Below, piece after piece: positions 1 to 8,217 of a stretch of DNA of 8,284 bases. Origin of the DNA: Bifidobacterium breve (GTDB lineage: Bacteria > Actinomycetota > Acidimicrobiia > Acidimicrobiales > Ilumatobacteraceae); NCBI GenBank assembly GCA_943325435.2, contig CALPPK020000032.1:1-8284 (forward strand), written 5' to 3'. Positions within the stretch are counted from its first letter, which is position 1; every line of letters begins with the position of its first letter. The notes below the pieces were generated by a model. It was not told the origin of the DNA. It made no database searches and worked only from the letters and a program-made list of their open reading frames with translations. Position numbers and translations under genes: made by a program.

Positions 1-353
1 CAGAAGGCTCTGGAGTTTCCGATTCTTGGCTTGAAAAAGCTGTTGCGGTTGTACGCCGTACGCGTTCACATGCTGACTTGCGTGTCGGTTCATCAGTTCG
101 AGGTGCAGTTGACTTTGCCAAAGTTGCAGTGTCGTTAGCTGAACTTCGTGAAGCAAACATAGAGAACCCAAGTGTCGGAGTTGATTCAGCATTGGTTGCA
201 TTGTCTGGTCGCGTACGTGTGCGCGAAGGCAGCGTGCGAACCGCTGAAGAAATCGTTACCGAAATCTGGCAAGACGTGTTTGGTCGAACCGAAGGGGACG
301 CCAACGGGGGAAAAGTGACGGCCCCGACAGGGGCGGACACGACCTCCCGCTAA
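1..353 (+). CDS. MoxR-family AAA+ ATPase, C-terminal part (5' end outside window)
   Basis: This is the C-terminal lid of a MoxR-type AAA+ ATPase. The frame is open from the window edge (first full codon at 3) to TAA at 351-353. The Walker motifs lie upstream and are not visible. The stretch 'RVGSSVRGA' (84-104) matches the sensor-2 segment of MoxR proteins ('GASPRxA'), with the sensor-2 Arg at 99-101, and is followed by the helical lid. MoxR ATPases usually work with a VWA-domain partner as chaperones that insert metal or mature enzyme complexes (RavA/ViaA, NorQ/NorD, CoxD/CoxE), and a VWA gene follows directly here. The last 13 zero-frame residues, after the GGGAAAA run at 308-314, are low in complexity and end in a short tail. 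This suggests the tail may be only one of two alternative C-termini, the other reached by -1 frameshifting. Family assignment is fairly secure; the substrate is unknown. Confidence 0.75.
   Translation, partial: EGSGVSDSWLEKAVAVVRRTRSHADLRVGSSVRGAVDFAKVAVSLAELREANIENPSVGVDSALVALSGRVRVREGSVRTAEEIVTEIWQDVFGRTEGDANGGKVTAPTGADTTSR
292..334 (+). promoter_or_regulatory. Candidate programmed -1 ribosomal frameshift signal joining MoxR and VWA frames
   Basis: Three elements occur in the order seen at dnaX-type -1 sites. An SD-like AAGGGG lies at 292-297, 10 nt before the heptamer. The heptamer GGGAAAA at 308-314 is phased G GGA AAA in the ATPase frame (codons GGA 309-311, AAA 312-314). A hairpin GCCCC-GACA-GGGGC lies at 321-334, six nt downstream. 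A -1 slip moves ribosomes exactly into the frame of the VWA gene, which is open from 248 to 1267. The elements are read directly from the sequence; their function is inferred. An indel error in the G5A4 run would leave the same frame pattern. Confidence 0.5.
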
Positions 354-460
354 CGAAAGAGGGCGACGAAGCAGATCAAGCTGTCGCTGAAGCAGGAAAG
401 CGCACCACGTCTCGTCGTGACCTTTCCCGTCATGAAAATTTCGAAAACATCTCGCCAGAA

Positions 461-1270
461 GTGGGCGAACTTGATGAAGTTGCTGTCGACGAAGCAATGC
501 AGAACAGCCCTGACGAAATGCTGGGCATGCTTGCTGATCTAACTGGCGCAACAGACCCCGCATTACGCGCGTTGGCTCAACGGTTAGCAGGACGTCTAAT
601 GCTTGATATCGGAAATCGTGGTCGTACTCGACCAAATGGTGTTGGAAAGATGGAAGAACAGGCGTATCGACCTGATGCAGGCGATATTGACATTGACGCA
701 AGCCTTGACGCCATCAGTGAAGCTCGTAATGGAATTGCTCTTGACCCGGAACGTTTGCGTATTCGTGGATGGCGTAAGCCAGGGACTGCTTTTTGTTTGC
801 TTCTCGACCGCAGCGGATCAATGGGTGGTAAACCACTTGCAACATCGGCCGTTGCCACTGGCGCTATTGCTAGTCGGTGTCCAGAGGATTACAGCGTTAT
901 TGCATTCGGAAAAGATGTGGTGGTCACAAAATCACAAGATGTTCCGAAATCAAGCGAGCGTGTTATCAACGATGTGTTGACATTGCGTGGTCACGGCACA
1001 ACTGATTTGGCAGGTGCGTTACTTGCGGGGCAACAGCAACTTTCTCGCTCGCGAGCTGGCCGTCGAGTAGCGATACTTCTCTCTGACTGTCGTGCCACTG
1101 TTGATGGCGATGCAGAAGCGGCAGCTATGAGTATGGATGAAGTAATCGTGATTGCGCCGGCTGAAGATCATGATGAGGCAAAAGCCTTTGCAGATCGCAT
1201 TGGTGCGCGCATGGCATTAGTCAATGGGCCAAGCGAGATACCAGAAGTACTGGCGCGAGTTCTTGAATAA
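461..1270 (+). CDS. VWA-domain protein, ChlD/CoxE-like partner of MoxR ATPase (N-terminus uncertain)
   Basis: The protein has a helical N-terminal region and a C-terminal von Willebrand A domain. With the GTG at 461 as residue 1 it has 269 residues. The full MIDAS set is present: D116-x-S118-x-S120, T181 and D209, so a divalent metal can be bound. It would act as the adaptor of the upstream MoxR ATPase. GTG 461 is the first conventional start after the in-frame TGA at 245-247, but it has no convincing ribosome site and lies 108 nt beyond the ATPase stop. The same frame from about 356 to 460 looks coding: an acidic linker, then 'RRDLSRHENF', which resembles the N-terminus of related VWA proteins as I recall them. 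The true product is therefore probably longer, perhaps a fusion made by -1 frameshifting at 308-314, giving an AAA+/VWA protein of ChlD-like layout. Its stop at 1268-1270 directly abuts the convergent LCP gene. VWA identity is firm; the start is not. Confidence 0.8.
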   Translation: MGELDEVAVDEAMQNSPDEMLGMLADLTGATDPALRALAQRLAGRLMLDIGNRGRTRPNGVGKMEEQAYRPDAGDIDIDASLDAISEARNGIALDPERLRIRGWRKPGTAFCLLLDRSGSMGGKPLATSAVATGAIASRCPEDYSVIAFGKDVVVTKSQDVPKSSERVINDVLTLRGHGTTDLAGALLAGQQQLSRSRAGRRVAILLSDCRATVDGDAEAAAMSMDEVIVIAPAEDHDEAKAFADRIGARMALVNGPSEIPEVLARVLE

Positions 1271-2530
1271 CTAGAACTGACAGTTGGGATCGTCAATTGG
1301 AACAATCCCCTTAGTCGTTTGTTGAATCACAACTGCAGGAACTGTTGTGGTCGTTGTGCTGGTTGTTGTAGTCACCGCAGGCATTGGCATCGCAAGTCGG
1401 ATAACCGACAAAGTTGCTGACACTGAAGCAAGTTCAGTGAATTCTGCTGAAGGGGCGATGCTCGAAGTCTTCTTCAAGGTGGTTGACAAGCTTGCTTTGC
1501 CTTGGAACACAGCAAGAATTTTCTTTGACTGGTCACTTTCGAAATCAGGCATGATGACAGCCGCTTTGTCGACGACTTGCCCGATTCCCGGCATGGTGTA
1601 ACTGCCCATTGTGTTTGCATCAAAGTTCTTCATGGCCTGGCCTAGTTGAAGAACTGTAAGAGCATTGAGGCGGTCGTCTGTGATTACATTCTTCAATGCG
1701 GCGTTAAGAATCCCTGTTGCCACACGTGGGTTAGTCCGTGCTTTATCTAGGGCCTTCTTCACCAGACGTCGCATGAAATCTTGTTGGCGAGCAATGCGTC
1801 CCCAGTCAGACGACGGGTCAGTACGCCATTTCTTAAGTGCAGGGTCGTACCACTGATAATGACGAGAGCGCATATATGCGAGTGCGTGGTCGCCTTCAAA
1901 GGTGTAGCAAACATTGGCCTTCAATACCTTGAATCCGGTGCGTTTGTCTCGGGCCTTGGTCGCAAACGGCACGCGCACTCCACCCACGGCATCAATGACT
2001 TCTTTGAAAGCACAAAAGTCAATGTTGACGTAATGGTCAATCGGGATACCGAAGTTCTCTTTAATGGTGCGTATGAGACGGTTGGGGTTCTTCTTGTCGA
2101 AATTGGTGTTGATACGTCCGCGACGCGTTGAACCTGCTTGTGTCACCCACATGTCTCGAGGAAAGGAAAGAACAGCTGCCTGGTTGTCGATGGGGTTAAC
2201 TCGAATCACCATGATCGAGTCGCTACGTTCGCCGTATGCGGTGCGCTTTCCAAAGCCGCCTGCGTACGGTGAATCTTTGGCTATGCATGCATTGTTATCA
2301 GAACCGGTGATCAAGAAGTTTTTGGCTTTCAGGTCACCGATTGGTAAATCAAATCCGTTGGCATTGGGGTCAACTGAATCAATGGTGACAACTTTGCGGT
2401 TGTTAAGTTTCCAGTTCGCGTACAAAAGACCAGAGCCAGAAAGAATTGTTAGTACCGCAAGTGTGATGTTGGCGAGGAGAAAAACACGGTGCTTGCCAGA
2501 GCGGTTGGAGGAAGCGGTTTCATCTGACAT
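1271..2530 (-). CDS. LytR-CpsA-Psr (LCP) family cell-wall glycopolymer ligase
   Basis: LCP proteins transfer lipid-linked glycopolymers (arabinogalactan or teichoic-acid-like chains) to peptidoglycan on the outer face of the membrane. From the ATG at 2530 the protein has 419 residues: a short basic cytoplasmic end, one membrane helix at about 16-38, then the extracellular LCP domain. Family motifs are clear: 'KNFLITGSD' (70-78), 'RSDSI' (102-106), 'SFPRD' (122-126, with the catalytic-site Arg and Asp), 'IDHYVNIDF', 'LAYMRSRH' and 'DWGRIARQQ'. There is no clear C-terminal LytR_C domain; the tail has a Thr-rich run and ends in 'DPNCQF'. An in-frame TTG at 2566 would add 12 residues, but the ATG has AAGGG just upstream and gives a cleaner N-terminus. 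It lies 48 bp downstream of valS on the same strand, so readthrough from valS is likely, although a TACGGT box 9 nt before the ATG could start its own transcript. Confidence 0.9.
   Translation of the reverse strand: MSDETASSNRSGKHRVFLLANITLAVLTILSGSGLLYANWKLNNRKVVTIDSVDPNANGFDLPIGDLKAKNFLITGSDNNACIAKDSPYAGGFGKRTAYGERSDSIMVIRVNPIDNQAAVLSFPRDMWVTQAGSTRRGRINTNFDKKNPNRLIRTIKENFGIPIDHYVNIDFCAFKEVIDAVGGVRVPFATKARDKRTGFKVLKANVCYTFEGDHALAYMRSRHYQWYDPALKKWRTDPSSDWGRIARQQDFMRRLVKKALDKARTNPRVATGILNAALKNVITDDRLNALTVLQLGQAMKNFDANTMGSYTMPGIGQVVDKAAVIMPDFESDQSKKILAVFQGKASLSTTLKKTSSIAPSAEFTELASVSATLSVIRLAMPMPAVTTTTSTTTTTVPAVVIQQTTKGIVPIDDPNCQF
1332..1380 (-). repeat. Thr-codon tract encoding the low-complexity tail of the LCP protein
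   Basis: On the plus strand this is a run of gtt/gtg/gta triplets, which on the coding strand are mostly Thr codons. They encode the 'TTTTSTTTTTVP' stretch near the LCP C-terminus. Such Thr/Pro tails are common in exported proteins of Acidimicrobiia, probably as flexible or glycosylated linkers. The triplets differ in their third base, so the tract is maintained at protein level rather than being a pure DNA microsatellite. Confidence 0.6.
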
Positions 2531-2539
2531 GACCCTTAC

Positions 2540-2545
2540 ACCGTA
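2540..2545 (-). promoter_or_regulatory. Possible -10 box for the LCP gene
   Basis: TACGGT on the minus strand fits TAnnnT and lies 9 nt before the LCP ATG. The valS start has the same layout, TACGAT then 9 nt then ATG, and the two share TACG-T-TAAG over the aligned stretch. This suggests a near-leaderless internal start inside the valS-LCP unit. No good -35 is seen, so confidence is low. Confidence 0.25.
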
Positions 2546-2578
2546 CTTGCGTGGGCGGGCCGCCAACAGTCGTTGCGG

Positions 2579-6543: not shown

Positions 6544-7711
6544 GAAACAACGCACGCCAATGCCGGCGGGCTACTGGACAATTTGGACCACCGTTGCACT
6601 TGACCTCGTAGGGTTCGGCATTGTCGTCCCCATCCTGGGTCGTTATGCAGAACGATTTGGCGCAAATGGCTTGCAAGTTGGCCTTATGTTTGCTTCCTTC
6701 TCAATTGCTCAAATGGTGTTTGCACCAATTCTCGGGCGCATCTCTGACAAGGTCGGTCGCAAGCCAGTCATTGTGTTTTCTCTCATAGGCACGGCAGTCG
6801 GCAGTTTTGTCACCGGCGCGGCTGGTGCACTGTGGGTTCTTTTCCTCGGTCGAATACTCGATGGCGCATCGGGCGCAAGCGTTGCGGTAGCGCAAGGTGC
6901 TGTTGCAGACATCGCACCACCAGAACAACGCGCGCGACTAATGGGAATGTTGGGCGCAGCTTTCGGTGTGGGCTTTGTTGTCGGACCAGCTCTTGGTGGA
7001 CTTGCTGCACTCGGTGGCCCACACGTGCCGTTTTACTTAGCTGGCTCCATTGCTGCGATCAATGCAGTTGCCGCAATGATTCGGTTACCAGAAACAAAGC
7101 CTGACACTTCGCACATCACTGAAAAACACCAACGCGGAACAGCGTTGTCTCCTGCGCTAAAACGATTCGCCCTCGTTGGTTTTCTTTCAATGCTTGGCTT
7201 CGCGGGTTTTGAAGCAACGTTCTCAATCTGGGGTCAAAAGCAATTTGGCTTTACTGAAGGATCCGCATCAATTGTGTTCGTATTTGTTGGTGTCACCTTG
7301 GTTGCGGTTCAAGGTGGGCTTATTGGGCCGCTTACAGAAAAACTCGGCTCGCGAAAACTTCTACGTATTGGATTGTCGTTAGTAGCAGTCGGGCTACTTC
7401 TTCTTGGCTTCACCACCACGTGGCCGATGTTGTTTGTTGCGTTGTTTCTGTTGTCTCTCGGACAAGGAATGTCTGGACCATCAGGTGGGGCATTAGTCGC
7501 AGAACTTGCACCAGTGGAACGCCGTGGTGAAGCAATTGGATATCAACAAAGCACGGCTGCATTCGGGCGTGTTGCAGGCCCCGTTGCGGCCGGCGCGTTA
7601 TTTGATCACGTGGGTATCAGCGCACCGTTCTTAGTGAGCGGCATTTTGATTGTCTTTGCGGTGGGCTCTGTGTGGAGCATCACTCGCTCTGCAGTTACCG
7701 CAGCGAATTAA
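6536..7711 (+). CDS. MFS transporter, DHA1 (TetA-like) drug-efflux type
   Basis: It is an inner-membrane secondary transporter, probably a proton-coupled exporter of small molecules; the substrate cannot be read from sequence. From the GTG at 6536 it has 391 residues and about 12 membrane helices in two halves. Helix 1 carries Asp23 in 'ALDLVGFGIVVPIL', typical of DHA1 exporters. Motif A, 'GRISDKVGRK', is at 67-76. Motif C, the antiporter signature, is 'GVGFVVGPALGG' at 144-155. A related 'PVERRGEAIGY' loop and 'GRVAGPVAAGALFD' occur in the second half. The frame is open further upstream inside cysS, but those residues are not transporter-like. GTG 6536 overlaps the cysS end by 8 bp and gives a usual N-terminus, so translation is probably coupled to cysS. 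An ATG a few codons later (Met9) is possible. Its last 17 bp overlap the convergent small gene. Confidence 0.88.
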   Translation: MAKKQRTPMPAGYWTIWTTVALDLVGFGIVVPILGRYAERFGANGLQVGLMFASFSIAQMVFAPILGRISDKVGRKPVIVFSLIGTAVGSFVTGAAGALWVLFLGRILDGASGASVAVAQGAVADIAPPEQRARLMGMLGAAFGVGFVVGPALGGLAALGGPHVPFYLAGSIAAINAVAAMIRLPETKPDTSHITEKHQRGTALSPALKRFALVGFLSMLGFAGFEATFSIWGQKQFGFTEGSASIVFVFVGVTLVAVQGGLIGPLTEKLGSRKLLRIGLSLVAVGLLLLGFTTTWPMLFVALFLLSLGQGMSGPSGGALVAELAPVERRGEAIGYQQSTAAFGRVAGPVAAGALFDHVGISAPFLVSGILIVFAVGSVWSITRSAVTAAN

Positions 7712-8132
7712 TCATCAACCCAAGAAGGCCAACTGTGACAAGTTGTGACGACATGATTGCCGTAAACATCTTCCAGCTCTGATTGCGAAACCCGCGTTCC
7801 ATCGTGGCTGTGAGTTCAAGCTTCGTGGTCTCAACCGAGTGTTTCACTTCCATGATTGACTTCTCAAGATCAGTTCGCGTTTTCGTAATCACTTGTTCAA
7901 GTTCAGTACGAGTCGCGATTGCGCTGAACTCAATGTCGTGCTTCGTCGCGATGCGCAATTCGTCAATGTCGTGCTTGGTTGCAATGCGTAACTCGTCAAG
8001 GTCTCGTTTGGTTGCGAATTCTGTCCAAGTGATTGGCGGTAGCTGCTCCATAAGAATGTCAGCCTCCTCTGTGCCAATGACTTCACAAAGGCGAGCATGT
8101 AGCCGCCGCTTGTTTTGTTCTGTAAAAGCCAA
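7695..8132 (-). CDS. Small coiled-coil protein with C-terminal membrane helix (DUF1640/CCDC90-like)
   Basis: A 145-residue protein of unknown function. It has three parts: an N-terminal helical segment starting 'AFTEQNKRRLHARL' with 'LMEQLPP' (28-33); a long coiled coil; and a hydrophobic helix at about 122-142 ('FTAIMSSQLVTVGLLGLMI') that probably anchors it in the membrane. Residues 40-94 form five 11-residue repeats of the type AT-K/R-x-D/E-L/I, in phase at T41/T52/T63/T74/T85 and D44/D55/D66/E77/D88. This is a hendecad coiled coil. The layout resembles DUF1640/CCDC90-type proteins, in which such oligomeric stalks are tied to a membrane; no function should be assigned. The TTG at 8132 is preferred because AAGGGGG lies 5 nt upstream. 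An ATG at 8186 would add 18 residues across that ribosome site. The stop lies inside the end of the exporter gene (17-bp tail-to-tail overlap). Confidence 0.75.
   Translation of the reverse strand: MAFTEQNKRRLHARLCEVIGTEEADILMEQLPPITWTEFATKRDLDELRIATKHDIDELRIATKHDIEFSAIATRTELEQVITKTRTDLEKSIMEVKHSVETTKLELTATMERGFRNQSWKMFTAIMSSQLVTVGLLGLMINSLR
7931..7996 (-). repeat. Two tandem 33-bp repeats in the coiled-coil gene
   Basis: Copies at 7931-7963 and 7964-7996 match at 28 of 33 positions, and a third, more diverged unit follows from 7997. Each encodes one hendecad. The differences fall mostly at third codon positions, so the protein repeat is conserved while the DNA has drifted. Confidence 0.7.
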
Positions 8133-8137
8133 AGTAG

Positions 8138-8144
8138 CCCCCTT
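8138..8144 (-). promoter_or_regulatory. Ribosome binding site fixing the TTG start of the coiled-coil gene
   Basis: On the minus strand AAGGGGG is followed by 5 nt (ctact) and then TTG at 8132. It is one of the clearest Shine-Dalgarno sites in the window and decides the start. In contrast, valS and cysS have none. Confidence 0.65.
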
Positions 8145-8217
8145 AGTTGGTATCTGCAAACGATGTGTGCCCCTAGCGCACGCCATTGGCAGTTGGTTGT
8201 AGAACGCACCTGATTAT

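What the first reader, a model, noticed from the sequence alone, without database searches (positions are those of the whole stretch)
248..460. Candidate programmed -1 frameshift producing both a MoxR ATPase and a MoxR-VWA fusion
Seen: the ATPase frame ends at 353; the VWA frame has no ATG/GTG/TTG between its upstream stop (245-247) and 461, yet reads as plausible coding sequence from about 356 onward. At the overlap lie AAGGGG (292-297), G GGA AAA (308-314) in the correct phase, a 6-nt spacer and a GCCCC/GGGGC hairpin (321-334). This arrangement matches dnaX-type -1 recoding, and the slip leads exactly into the VWA frame. Known: chlD genes, which also combine AAA+ and VWA domains, have been reported to use programmed frameshifting to make small and medium chelatase subunits from one gene, and phage lambda uses a similar G GGA AAG slip site. 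Inference: this MoxR/VWA pair makes a free ATPase and an ATPase-VWA fusion in a fixed ratio. I know of no such description for MoxR/VWA pairs.
Basis: partly seen in the sequence, partly recalled or inferred. Interest (0 to 1): 0.8.

Follow-up and report, generated by a model that had tools for sequence, protein, structure and literature searches.

The report
Conserved frameshift making ATPase and ATPase-VWA
In a group of mostly uncultured actinobacteria one gene appears to make two proteins, a ring-forming ATPase and a longer version with an adaptor arm, by letting some ribosomes slip back one base at a strictly conserved signal, next to genes for the redox cofactor mycofactocin.

Summary
The window holds the 3' end of a MoxR-type AAA+ ATPase whose frame stops at 353; a VWA protein follows in the -1 frame with no ATG/GTG/TTG before 461. 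At the overlap lie an SD-like AAGGGG, an in-phase G_GGA_AAA, a 6-nt spacer and a GCCCC/GGGGC hairpin.

Over 115 non-fused loci (100 distinct junctions, window included) the site is GGGAAAAG in 98, AAAAAAAG in 1, GGGGGAAG in 1. A stem of -7 kcal/mol or better follows in 97 of 100, against 8% of shuffles. The in-phase heptamer occurs elsewhere in 79 of these genes at 2 of 46,055 codon positions. Eight more distant relatives are uninterrupted ATPase-VWA fusions; one is 95% identical to a Rubrobacter xylanophilus protein.

The ATPase is far below the ChlD cut-offs. In a class sample mftC occurs in 33 of 34 genomes with the gene and 19 of 213 without; an NDMA-type alcohol dehydrogenase gene lies just upstream in 67 of 69 evaluable loci.

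Best explanation: dnaX-type -1 frameshifting yields free ATPase plus ATPase-VWA, a NorQD/CbbQO-like remodelling ring for the mycofactocin system. Slippage itself is unproven at the bench; the function is inference.

The parts
3..353 (+). 3' end of MoxR-type AAA+ ATPase (0 frame), stop TAA 351-353
   Evidence: full-length relative L002:3111-4034 hits AAA_5 PF07728 4.3e-26
292..297 (+). SD-like AAGGGG, 10 nt 5' of the heptamer (5' stimulator, inferred)
   Evidence: sequence; anti-SD pairing over 99 junctions peaks with 7-mers starting -16 to -14, means -3.5 to -3.6 kcal/mol
308..314 (+). slippery heptamer G_GGA_AAA
   Evidence: sequence
315..320 (+). 6-nt spacer
321..334 (+). stimulatory hairpin GCCCC-GACA-GGGGC (predicted lower stem extends to 315-340)
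308..1270 (+). -1 frame part of the fusion: GKSDGPDRGGHDLPLTKEG... then VWA protein, stop 1268-1270
   Evidence: relatives
356..460 (+). -1-frame coding between ATPase stop and first start codon; 374-451 tested for third-position variation
   Evidence: ordered in the model (residues 11-50, block mean pLDDT 82-89)
461..463 (+). GTG, first canonical start codon in the VWA frame (P0004 begins there); not conserved as a start
797..1156 (+). VWA domain (PF00092), with MIDAS DRSGS 806-820
   Evidence: sequence

Best explanation
The locus is one gene read in two frames. Ribosomes that stay in frame make a MoxR-type AAA+ ATPase ending at 353. A fraction slip back one base on G_GGA_AAA (308-314), helped by the SD-like element 5' and the GC hairpin 3', and make an ATPase-VWA fusion ending at 1270. 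Shown here: anatomy, phase, conservation of the signal, constraint on the -1 frame, uninterrupted fusions in outer relatives, and linkage to mycofactocin genes. Inferred: that slippage happens, its rate, and function. I think the two products co-assemble into an AAA+ ring carrying one or a few VWA arms, like NorQD or CbbQO, which remodels or activates the neighbouring NDMA-dependent, mycofactocin-linked alcohol dehydrogenases (function about 0.5 likely). The confidence given is for the frameshift and the two products.
For: Signal: 98 of 100 distinct junctions GGGAAAAG; one AAAAAAAG (L080), a different slippery heptamer. With the stem allowed to start 4-8 nt after the heptamer, in real and shuffled sequence alike, 97 of 100 reach -7 kcal/mol vs 8.2% of dinucleotide shuffles; in 81 of 100 at most 5% of their own shuffles are as stable; spacer 5-7 nt in 95 of the 98 with a stem. 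14 distant junctions have a stem without the GCCCC/GGGGC core, 13 of them still -7 or better. Gly-Lys elsewhere in these genes is GGA-AAA in 43 of 304 but 78 of 79 at the junction. Frame: VWA in -1 in 78 of 79, 30 of 30 and 5 of 5 (L114-L116, L118, L119) non-fused loci. In 44 of 100 a -1-frame stop ends 0-15 nt 5' of the heptamer, so the switch lies no further upstream than that; in 70 of 100 no ATG/GTG/TTG occurs in the -1 ORF before +61. Fusions: 8 one-ORF homologues (L117, L120-L126) and Rubrobacter xylanophilus proteins. Tree: 88 frameshift rows on one side of a branch, SH-aLRT 97. Context. Fold: top Foldseek hits NorD and NorQ.
Against: No translation data. L116 has GGGGGAA, a poor heptamer; the stem search finds none in L105 and L110 and only -2.3 kcal/mol in L118. 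In 30 of 100 junctions some ATG/GTG/TTG lies in the -1 ORF before +61 (18 of them 5' of the heptamer), and L039/L057 have an ATG overlapping the ATPase stop, so re-initiation could add free VWA there. One-ORF fusions show that a free ATPase is not always needed. The stem is nearly invariant among close relatives, so its rebuilding rests on distant ones. Signal and coding constraints share the same bases. 39 of 99 junctions do not reach -4 kcal/mol for the SD-like site.
Confidence: 0.92

Rival explanations
1. Two separate genes: the VWA is translated by re-initiation or internal initiation at a weak or non-canonical start after the ATPase stop.
For: Some loci have a GTG/ATG near or after the stop, e.g. 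ATGA in L039/L057 and GTG at +66 in a number of loci. Gene callers annotate such starts.
Against: No start position is shared by all. The first ATG/GTG/TTG lies beyond +100 in 38 of 100 and at or beyond +150 in 24 of 100; the window's GTG 461 would remove a part modelled at block mean pLDDT 82-89. It does not explain the conserved in-phase heptamer and hairpin.
Confidence: 0.05
2. Transcriptional slippage at the A run gives a mixed mRNA population.
For: L080 has seven A's; a slip of RNA polymerase could also join the frames (inference).
Against: 98 of 100 junctions have only four A's after G's, too short by what I recall of known cases. The hairpin at a 5-7 nt spacer and the SD-like peak suit the ribosome.
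Confidence: 0.02
3. Sequencing or assembly indel in the G5A4 run; a normal one-ORF fusion.
For: One-ORF fusions exist in relatives.
Against: 100 distinct junctions from many assemblies show the same frame relation (L070 has one more indel) and a stop in the 0 frame.
Confidence: 0.01

Closest known systems
fs-chlD: -1 frameshifting in chlD giving small and medium chelatase subunits (PMC3711429 passages, PMC9227772 sections; Antonov 2020 recalled, not held)
   Same: AAA+ ATPase alone plus ATPase-VWA fusion from one gene by -1 slippage; fusions of the two parts in relatives; three tested chelatase cassettes gave 63, 40 and 10% frameshifting in E. coli (PMC3711429 passages).
   Different: ATPase here scores 43.6 bits on TIGR02031 (cut-off 499.55) and 37.9 on TIGR02442 (779.45). 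Slip is G_GGA_AAA with a compact conserved GC hairpin, not A_AAA_AAR with structure of poorly conserved sequence (PMC5009743 passages). Linked to mycofactocin genes, not B12 or chlorophyll.
dnaX-type -1 PRF signal (details recalled)
   Same: SD-like element about 10 nt 5', slippery heptamer, hairpin 5-7 nt 3', 0-frame stop soon after.
   Different: Heptamer mostly G_GGA_AAA; here the shift extends the protein, whereas in dnaX it truncates it.
NorQD and CbbQO: MoxR AAA+ hexamer plus VWA adaptor
   Same: Top Foldseek hits for the VWA model (9qhd_G, E 1.4e-9, TM 0.51 by target, rmsd 8.7) and for the Rubrobacter fusion model (NorQ, then CbbQ; TM about 0.5 by target, rmsd about 14). PMC4660213 passages report CbbQ6CbbO1 and predict hexamer plus one VWA as a general theme.
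   Different: There the two are separate genes (recalled); here the VWA seems to be made as a fusion by frameshift. Partner would be mycofactocin-linked dehydrogenases.
Midasin/Rea1
   Same: Best sequence hit of the ATPase in the PDB (2.9e-37); ATPase and VWA in one chain.
   Different: Six AAA modules (PMC4660213 passage) in one eukaryotic chain of about 4,700-4,900 residues.
Mycofactocin locus (MftA-F, NDMA-dependent dehydrogenases)
   Same: L002's genome carries MftA, B, C, E, F and two TIGR03989 dehydrogenases beside the gene.
   Different: No MoxR, VWA or AAA term in two mycofactocin papers searched by term. A literature search for mycofactocin with MoxR listed one paper (PMC8191103, not opened); with ATPase, nine, of which only PMC11778925 was opened, for other terms.

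Membership tests
-1 programmed ribosomal frameshifting, bacterial dnaX type | X_XXY_YYZ heptamer in the 0-frame phase, conserved | tested here: met
   98 GGGAAAA + 1 AAAAAAA of 100 distinct junctions; L116 differs
-1 programmed ribosomal frameshifting, bacterial dnaX type | 3' structure a few nt downstream, conserved as structure | tested here: met
   97 of 100 at -7 kcal/mol or better (search limited to 4-8 nt spacers), 18 stem pairs, 14 junctions with a rebuilt core; L105, L110, L118 fail
-1 programmed ribosomal frameshifting, bacterial dnaX type | SD-like element 5' of the slip | tested here: met
   mean best pairing -5.34 vs -3.56 kcal/mol in shuffles; 60 of 99 at -4 or lower, so not in every locus
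-1 programmed ribosomal frameshifting, bacterial dnaX type | measured frameshift product | not testable with these tools
   needs reporter or mass spectrometry
fs-chlD / ChlD | ATPase scores as ChlD or cobaltochelatase | tested here: not met
   TIGR02031 43.6 vs 499.55; TIGR02442 37.9 vs 779.45. The ATPase part alone was scanned. Pfam Mg_chelatase PF01078 does pass its low cut-off (32.8 vs 20.3), well below AAA_5 at 92 bits
MoxR-VWA pairs (NorQD/CbbQO-like) | MoxR-type AAA+ domain | tested here: met
   AAA_5 4.3e-26, AAA_3 3.4e-13, bpMoxR 1.4e-10; NorQ/CbbQ top folds for the Rubrobacter fusion model
MoxR-VWA pairs (NorQD/CbbQO-like) | VWA with MIDAS motif DxSxS | tested here: met
   DRSGS at 806-820 (sequence); D164, S166, S168 invariant in A1, 31 sequences
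MoxR-VWA pairs (NorQD/CbbQO-like) | hexamer with one VWA subunit | not testable with these tools
   needs native mass spectrometry or cryo-EM
mycofactocin gene neighbourhood | co-location with mft genes and NDMA-dependent dehydrogenases | tested here: met
   67 of 69 dehydrogenase just upstream; mftC in 33 of 34 gene-positive vs 19 of 213 gene-negative genomes, Fisher p 2e-26, same contig in 29 of 33; kinship inflates the p value

The most novel reading that the evidence does not exclude
Frameshift efficiency counts subunits: slippage near one in six sets one VWA arm per AAA+ hexamer, assembling in one step the 6:1 MoxR-VWA geometry reported for CbbQO. This asymmetric machine is a previously undescribed mycofactocin-system component that activates or reloads nicotinoprotein alcohol dehydrogenases.
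Probability: 0.3. Interest if true: 0.88.

Novelty: new variant of a known kind. Interest (0 to 1): 0.74.

Why it matters
It would add a cellular gene family, with the signal kept nearly wherever the frameshift form was found (named records point to Acidimicrobiia; 34 of 247 genomes of a class sample hold the gene), to the known conserved cellular -1 frameshifts. As far as I found it is a second AAA+/VWA family, distinct from chlD, using slippage to make ATPase and ATPase-VWA from one gene. It gives a testable way in which a cell could set the unequal stoichiometry of MoxR-VWA rings, and it points to an unassigned ATPase machine in mycofactocin metabolism. Practically, many database VWA proteins of this family probably carry wrong N-termini.

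Tried and rejected
ChlD membership: rejected by scores. Anti-phage role: PADLOC gave 17 weak hits to the ATPase (best 1.2e-6) and none to the VWA. Viral contigs: 13 pattern matches, no relative. Plasmids: no match in 'near' mode. A frameshift heptamer in the 8 natural fusions: no GGGAAAA in the part scanned, only scattered other heptamers. Long open frames of 613-669 aa in L084, L095, L097 looked like fusions but are not in the ATPase's frame. My first scripts picked wrong upstream ORFs or did not turn minus-strand loci (part); these were redone and their counts are not used. L127 was not classed. The finder pattern required purine3-AAAA followed by CCC; L107 failed the same pattern and was placed from its printed sequence, L116 likewise.

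The tree is the quick method, has long branches, and holds 96 rows: 88 of the 99 distinct junctions other than the window's (11 were dropped for too little ATPase) plus 8 fusions. No rooting test was made, so the direction fusion-to-frameshift is inference. Pair-by-pair counts are not in register between stems of different length, so I count rebuilt stems instead.

Full report
WHAT IS THERE. The first 1,270 bases hold two overlapping frames on the + strand. Frame 3 is the C-terminal part of an AAA+ ATPase, cut by the window edge and ending at TAA 351-353. Frame 2 is open from 248 to 1270 and encodes a VWA protein. Its first ATG/GTG/TTG is GTG 461. VWA, VWA_2 and VWA_CoxE models hit it. Between the frames lie AAGGGG 292-297, G_GGA_AAA 308-314 in phase, six bases, and GCCCC-GACA-GGGGC 321-334. 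The 315-340 stretch folds at -14.9 kcal/mol (z -3.95).

RELATIVES. A protein search gave 1,566 VWA relatives (120 listed). By eye 8 of the 120 predicted proteins begin far enough upstream to show GKSxxPD or a near match, the -1 reading of the slip site and hairpin; the others begin at differing internal codons. A scan of the genome collection found 184 relatives, of which the best 80 were kept. In 79 of these (L037 begins at a contig edge) the junction is complete. All 79 have the heptamer, 78 GGGAAAA and L080 AAAAAAA; the VWA match is in -1 in 78, and L070 has a further indel. All 79 and the window have a perfect GC stem 5 or 6 nt downstream.

DISTANT RELATIVES. A class sample of 247 genomes gave 59 with any match, 34 of them at 3.2e-44 or better (the next at 6.4e-11); the 30 best loci were fetched. 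All 30 have the VWA in -1 and GGGAAAAG at the junction; one of them, L086, is from the genome of L044. A phylum sample of 396 genomes gave 28 with a match at E <= 1e-20 and 14 new loci: L114, L115, L118, L119 GGGAAAA; L116 GGGGGAA; L117 and L120-L126 one-ORF ATPase-VWA fusions; L127 not classed. Protein homologues of the L123 fusion include Rubrobacter xylanophilus proteins of 620 residues at 95 and 86% identity; Pfam hits of one cover both domains.

STATISTICS. After merging identical junctions, 115 loci give 100 distinct ones: 98 GGGAAAAG, 1 AAAAAAAG, 1 GGGGGAAG. A stem search limited to starts 4-8 nt after the heptamer finds -7 kcal/mol or better in 97 of 100 against 8.2% of dinucleotide shuffles under the same limits; it finds none in L105 and L110 and -2.3 in L118. 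84 stems contain GCCCC/GGGGC; 14, all from distant loci, are built of other paired sequences, e.g. L094, L097, L104, L107, L115, L119. Pairing to the anti-SD peaks for 7-mers starting 14-16 nt before the heptamer; the mean best value in the -20 to -11 window is -5.34 against -3.56 in shuffles, and 60 of 99 reach -4. Elsewhere in the 79 genes Lys is AAA in 303 of 994, Gly is GGA in 657 of 4,025, Gly-Lys is GGA-AAA in 43 of 304, and in-phase GGGAAAA occurs twice in 46,055 codon positions.

THE -1 FRAME IS CODING UPSTREAM OF ANY SHARED START. Over 26 codons before the conserved SPEVG (window 374-451; 79 sequences, window included, L070 left out), entropies by codon position are 0.74, 0.49 and 1.60 bits. 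In 44 of 100 junctions a -1-frame stop ends 0-15 nt before the heptamer. The first ATG/GTG/TTG of the -1 ORF lies 5' of the heptamer in 18, at 0-60 in 12, at 61-100 in 32, and beyond 100 in 38. Within -6 to +20 of the ATPase stop, 13 of 100 have a start-like codon; L039 and L057 have ATGA. The AlphaFold model of the window's VWA part (mean pLDDT 84.5) has its one stretch below 50 at residues 1-8, and GTG 461 would be residue 49.

EVOLUTION. In the tree (96 rows: 88 frameshift, 8 fusion) frameshift genes are one side of a branch with SH-aLRT 97, with fusion L117 next to them and seven fusions as the other side of the midpoint root. The method is the quick one and several branches are long. I read this as one origin of the frameshift, probably from a one-ORF fusion; the direction is inference.

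WHAT THE PROTEINS ARE. The full ATPase from L002 (308 aa) hits AAA_5 (4.3e-26), AAA_3 and bpMoxR; Mg_chelatase (32.8 bits, cut-off 20.3) and several other AAA-type models also pass. No NCBIfam model passes its cut-off among the 25 best listed of 57; ChlD and cobaltochelatase models are far below theirs. In the PDB its best sequence hits are midasin, then NorQ. The A1 profile of the VWA found only a weak CobT hit there (0.0015). Foldseek of the window's VWA model lists NorD of NorQD first (1.4e-9, TM 0.51 by target) and midasin MIDAS at rank 6. The Rubrobacter fusion model (pLDDT 83.4, pTM 0.50, low-confidence stretches 157-177 and 297-327) finds NorQ first and CbbQ at rank 13, with TM about 0.5 by target and high rmsd over the whole chain. 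Passages of PMC4660213 report CbbQ6CbbO1 and predict a hexamer plus one VWA as general. In the PDB listing NorQ of 9qhd has 24 chains in 4 entries and the VWA partner is chain G; I infer six to one.

SETTING. Upstream of the ATPase in L002 stand two NDMA-dependent alcohol dehydrogenases (TIGR03989, 561 and 551 bits, cut-off 440). All 6 genomes tested have TIGR03989 over cut-off and mftC over cut-off; weaker matches also occur in 13 and 14 of the 14 control genomes, none over cut-off. In L112, from L002's genome, MftA, MftB, MftE and MftF pass their cut-offs beside mftC. By similarity to L002's proteins the dehydrogenase is just upstream in 67 of 69 evaluable loci of the first 79, further upstream in 1 and missing in L079; an LCP-like gene is found in 70 of 73 evaluable downstream. 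Among L081-L127 (47 loci, three of them re-fetched regions L111-L113) 41 show a dehydrogenase match; of the 8 fusions 6 do, and L117, L123 and L125 also have an mftE match. In the class sample mftC occurs in 33 of 34 genomes with the gene (not in G226) and in 19 of 213 without it, so mycofactocin does not seem to require the gene (Fisher p 2e-26, inflated by kinship); 29 of 33 are on one contig, 27 within about 25 kb.

MECHANISM. Most likely: tandem slip of the two tRNAs on G_GGA_AAA from GGA-AAA to GGG-AAA, stimulated by the SD-like pairing 5' and the hairpin 3', as in dnaX (recalled). The 0-frame stop begins 34-43 nt after the heptamer start in 86 of 100 distinct junctions, at +10 in 10 and at 25, 28, 49 or 52 in 4. 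Products: free ATPase, and ATPase-VWA. Their use as a mixed ring that services the dehydrogenases follows from the NorQD/CbbQO resemblance and gene neighbours, and is inference. Against a strict one-arm rule: one-ORF fusions in other lineages would put a VWA on every subunit.

LITERATURE. Frameshifting for ATPase/ATPase-VWA pairs is known for chlD: PMC3711429 (passages), PMC5009743 (passages of the first 300,000 characters), PMC9227772 (abstract, introduction, results, passages). I found no description of this MoxR/VWA family's frameshift or of such a component in mycofactocin loci: searches (listings; most listed papers were not opened), and term look-ups in PMC3023750 and PMC11778925 with no hits. 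The library holds open-licence papers only, so this is weak evidence of absence.

VERDICT. The finding stands and is stronger than first stated: a conserved -1 programmed frameshift in a mycofactocin-linked MoxR-VWA gene. Expression proof is missing.

Noticed in passing
window 1271-2566, minus strand, and relatives: An LCP-like gene (label recalled, no family scan run) lies convergently downstream of the VWA end; a match to it is found in 70 of 73 evaluable loci.
   Followed up: partly
window 7695-8186, minus strand: An ORF with repeated DELRIATKHDI-like units, perhaps coiled coil; no Pfam hit.
   Followed up: partly
L001, L004, L005, L045, L050, L051 (titled Bifidobacterium breve): Record titles name Bifidobacterium breve, but these genes sit among Acidimicrobiia-type MAGs in the tree; the labels look wrong. 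L024 and L055 titles may be wrong too.
   Followed up: no
L116 (position 1462 after turning): The junction reads GGGGGAAG instead of GGGAAAAG but keeps phase and hairpin; either a weak slip site or a decaying one.
   Followed up: partly
L080: The heptamer is AAAAAAA, of the A_AAA_AAR type reported for chlD, in place of GGGAAAA, with hairpin kept: a natural exchange of slip sites.
   Followed up: partly
L008 and L070: L008's ATPase frame is open for only 125 codons and L070's VWA has an extra indel; perhaps assembly errors.
   Followed up: no
P0001-P0120: By eye only 8 of 120 listed VWA proteins reach the slip-site peptide; the rest are annotated from differing internal codons, so their N-termini are probably wrong.
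   Followed up: no
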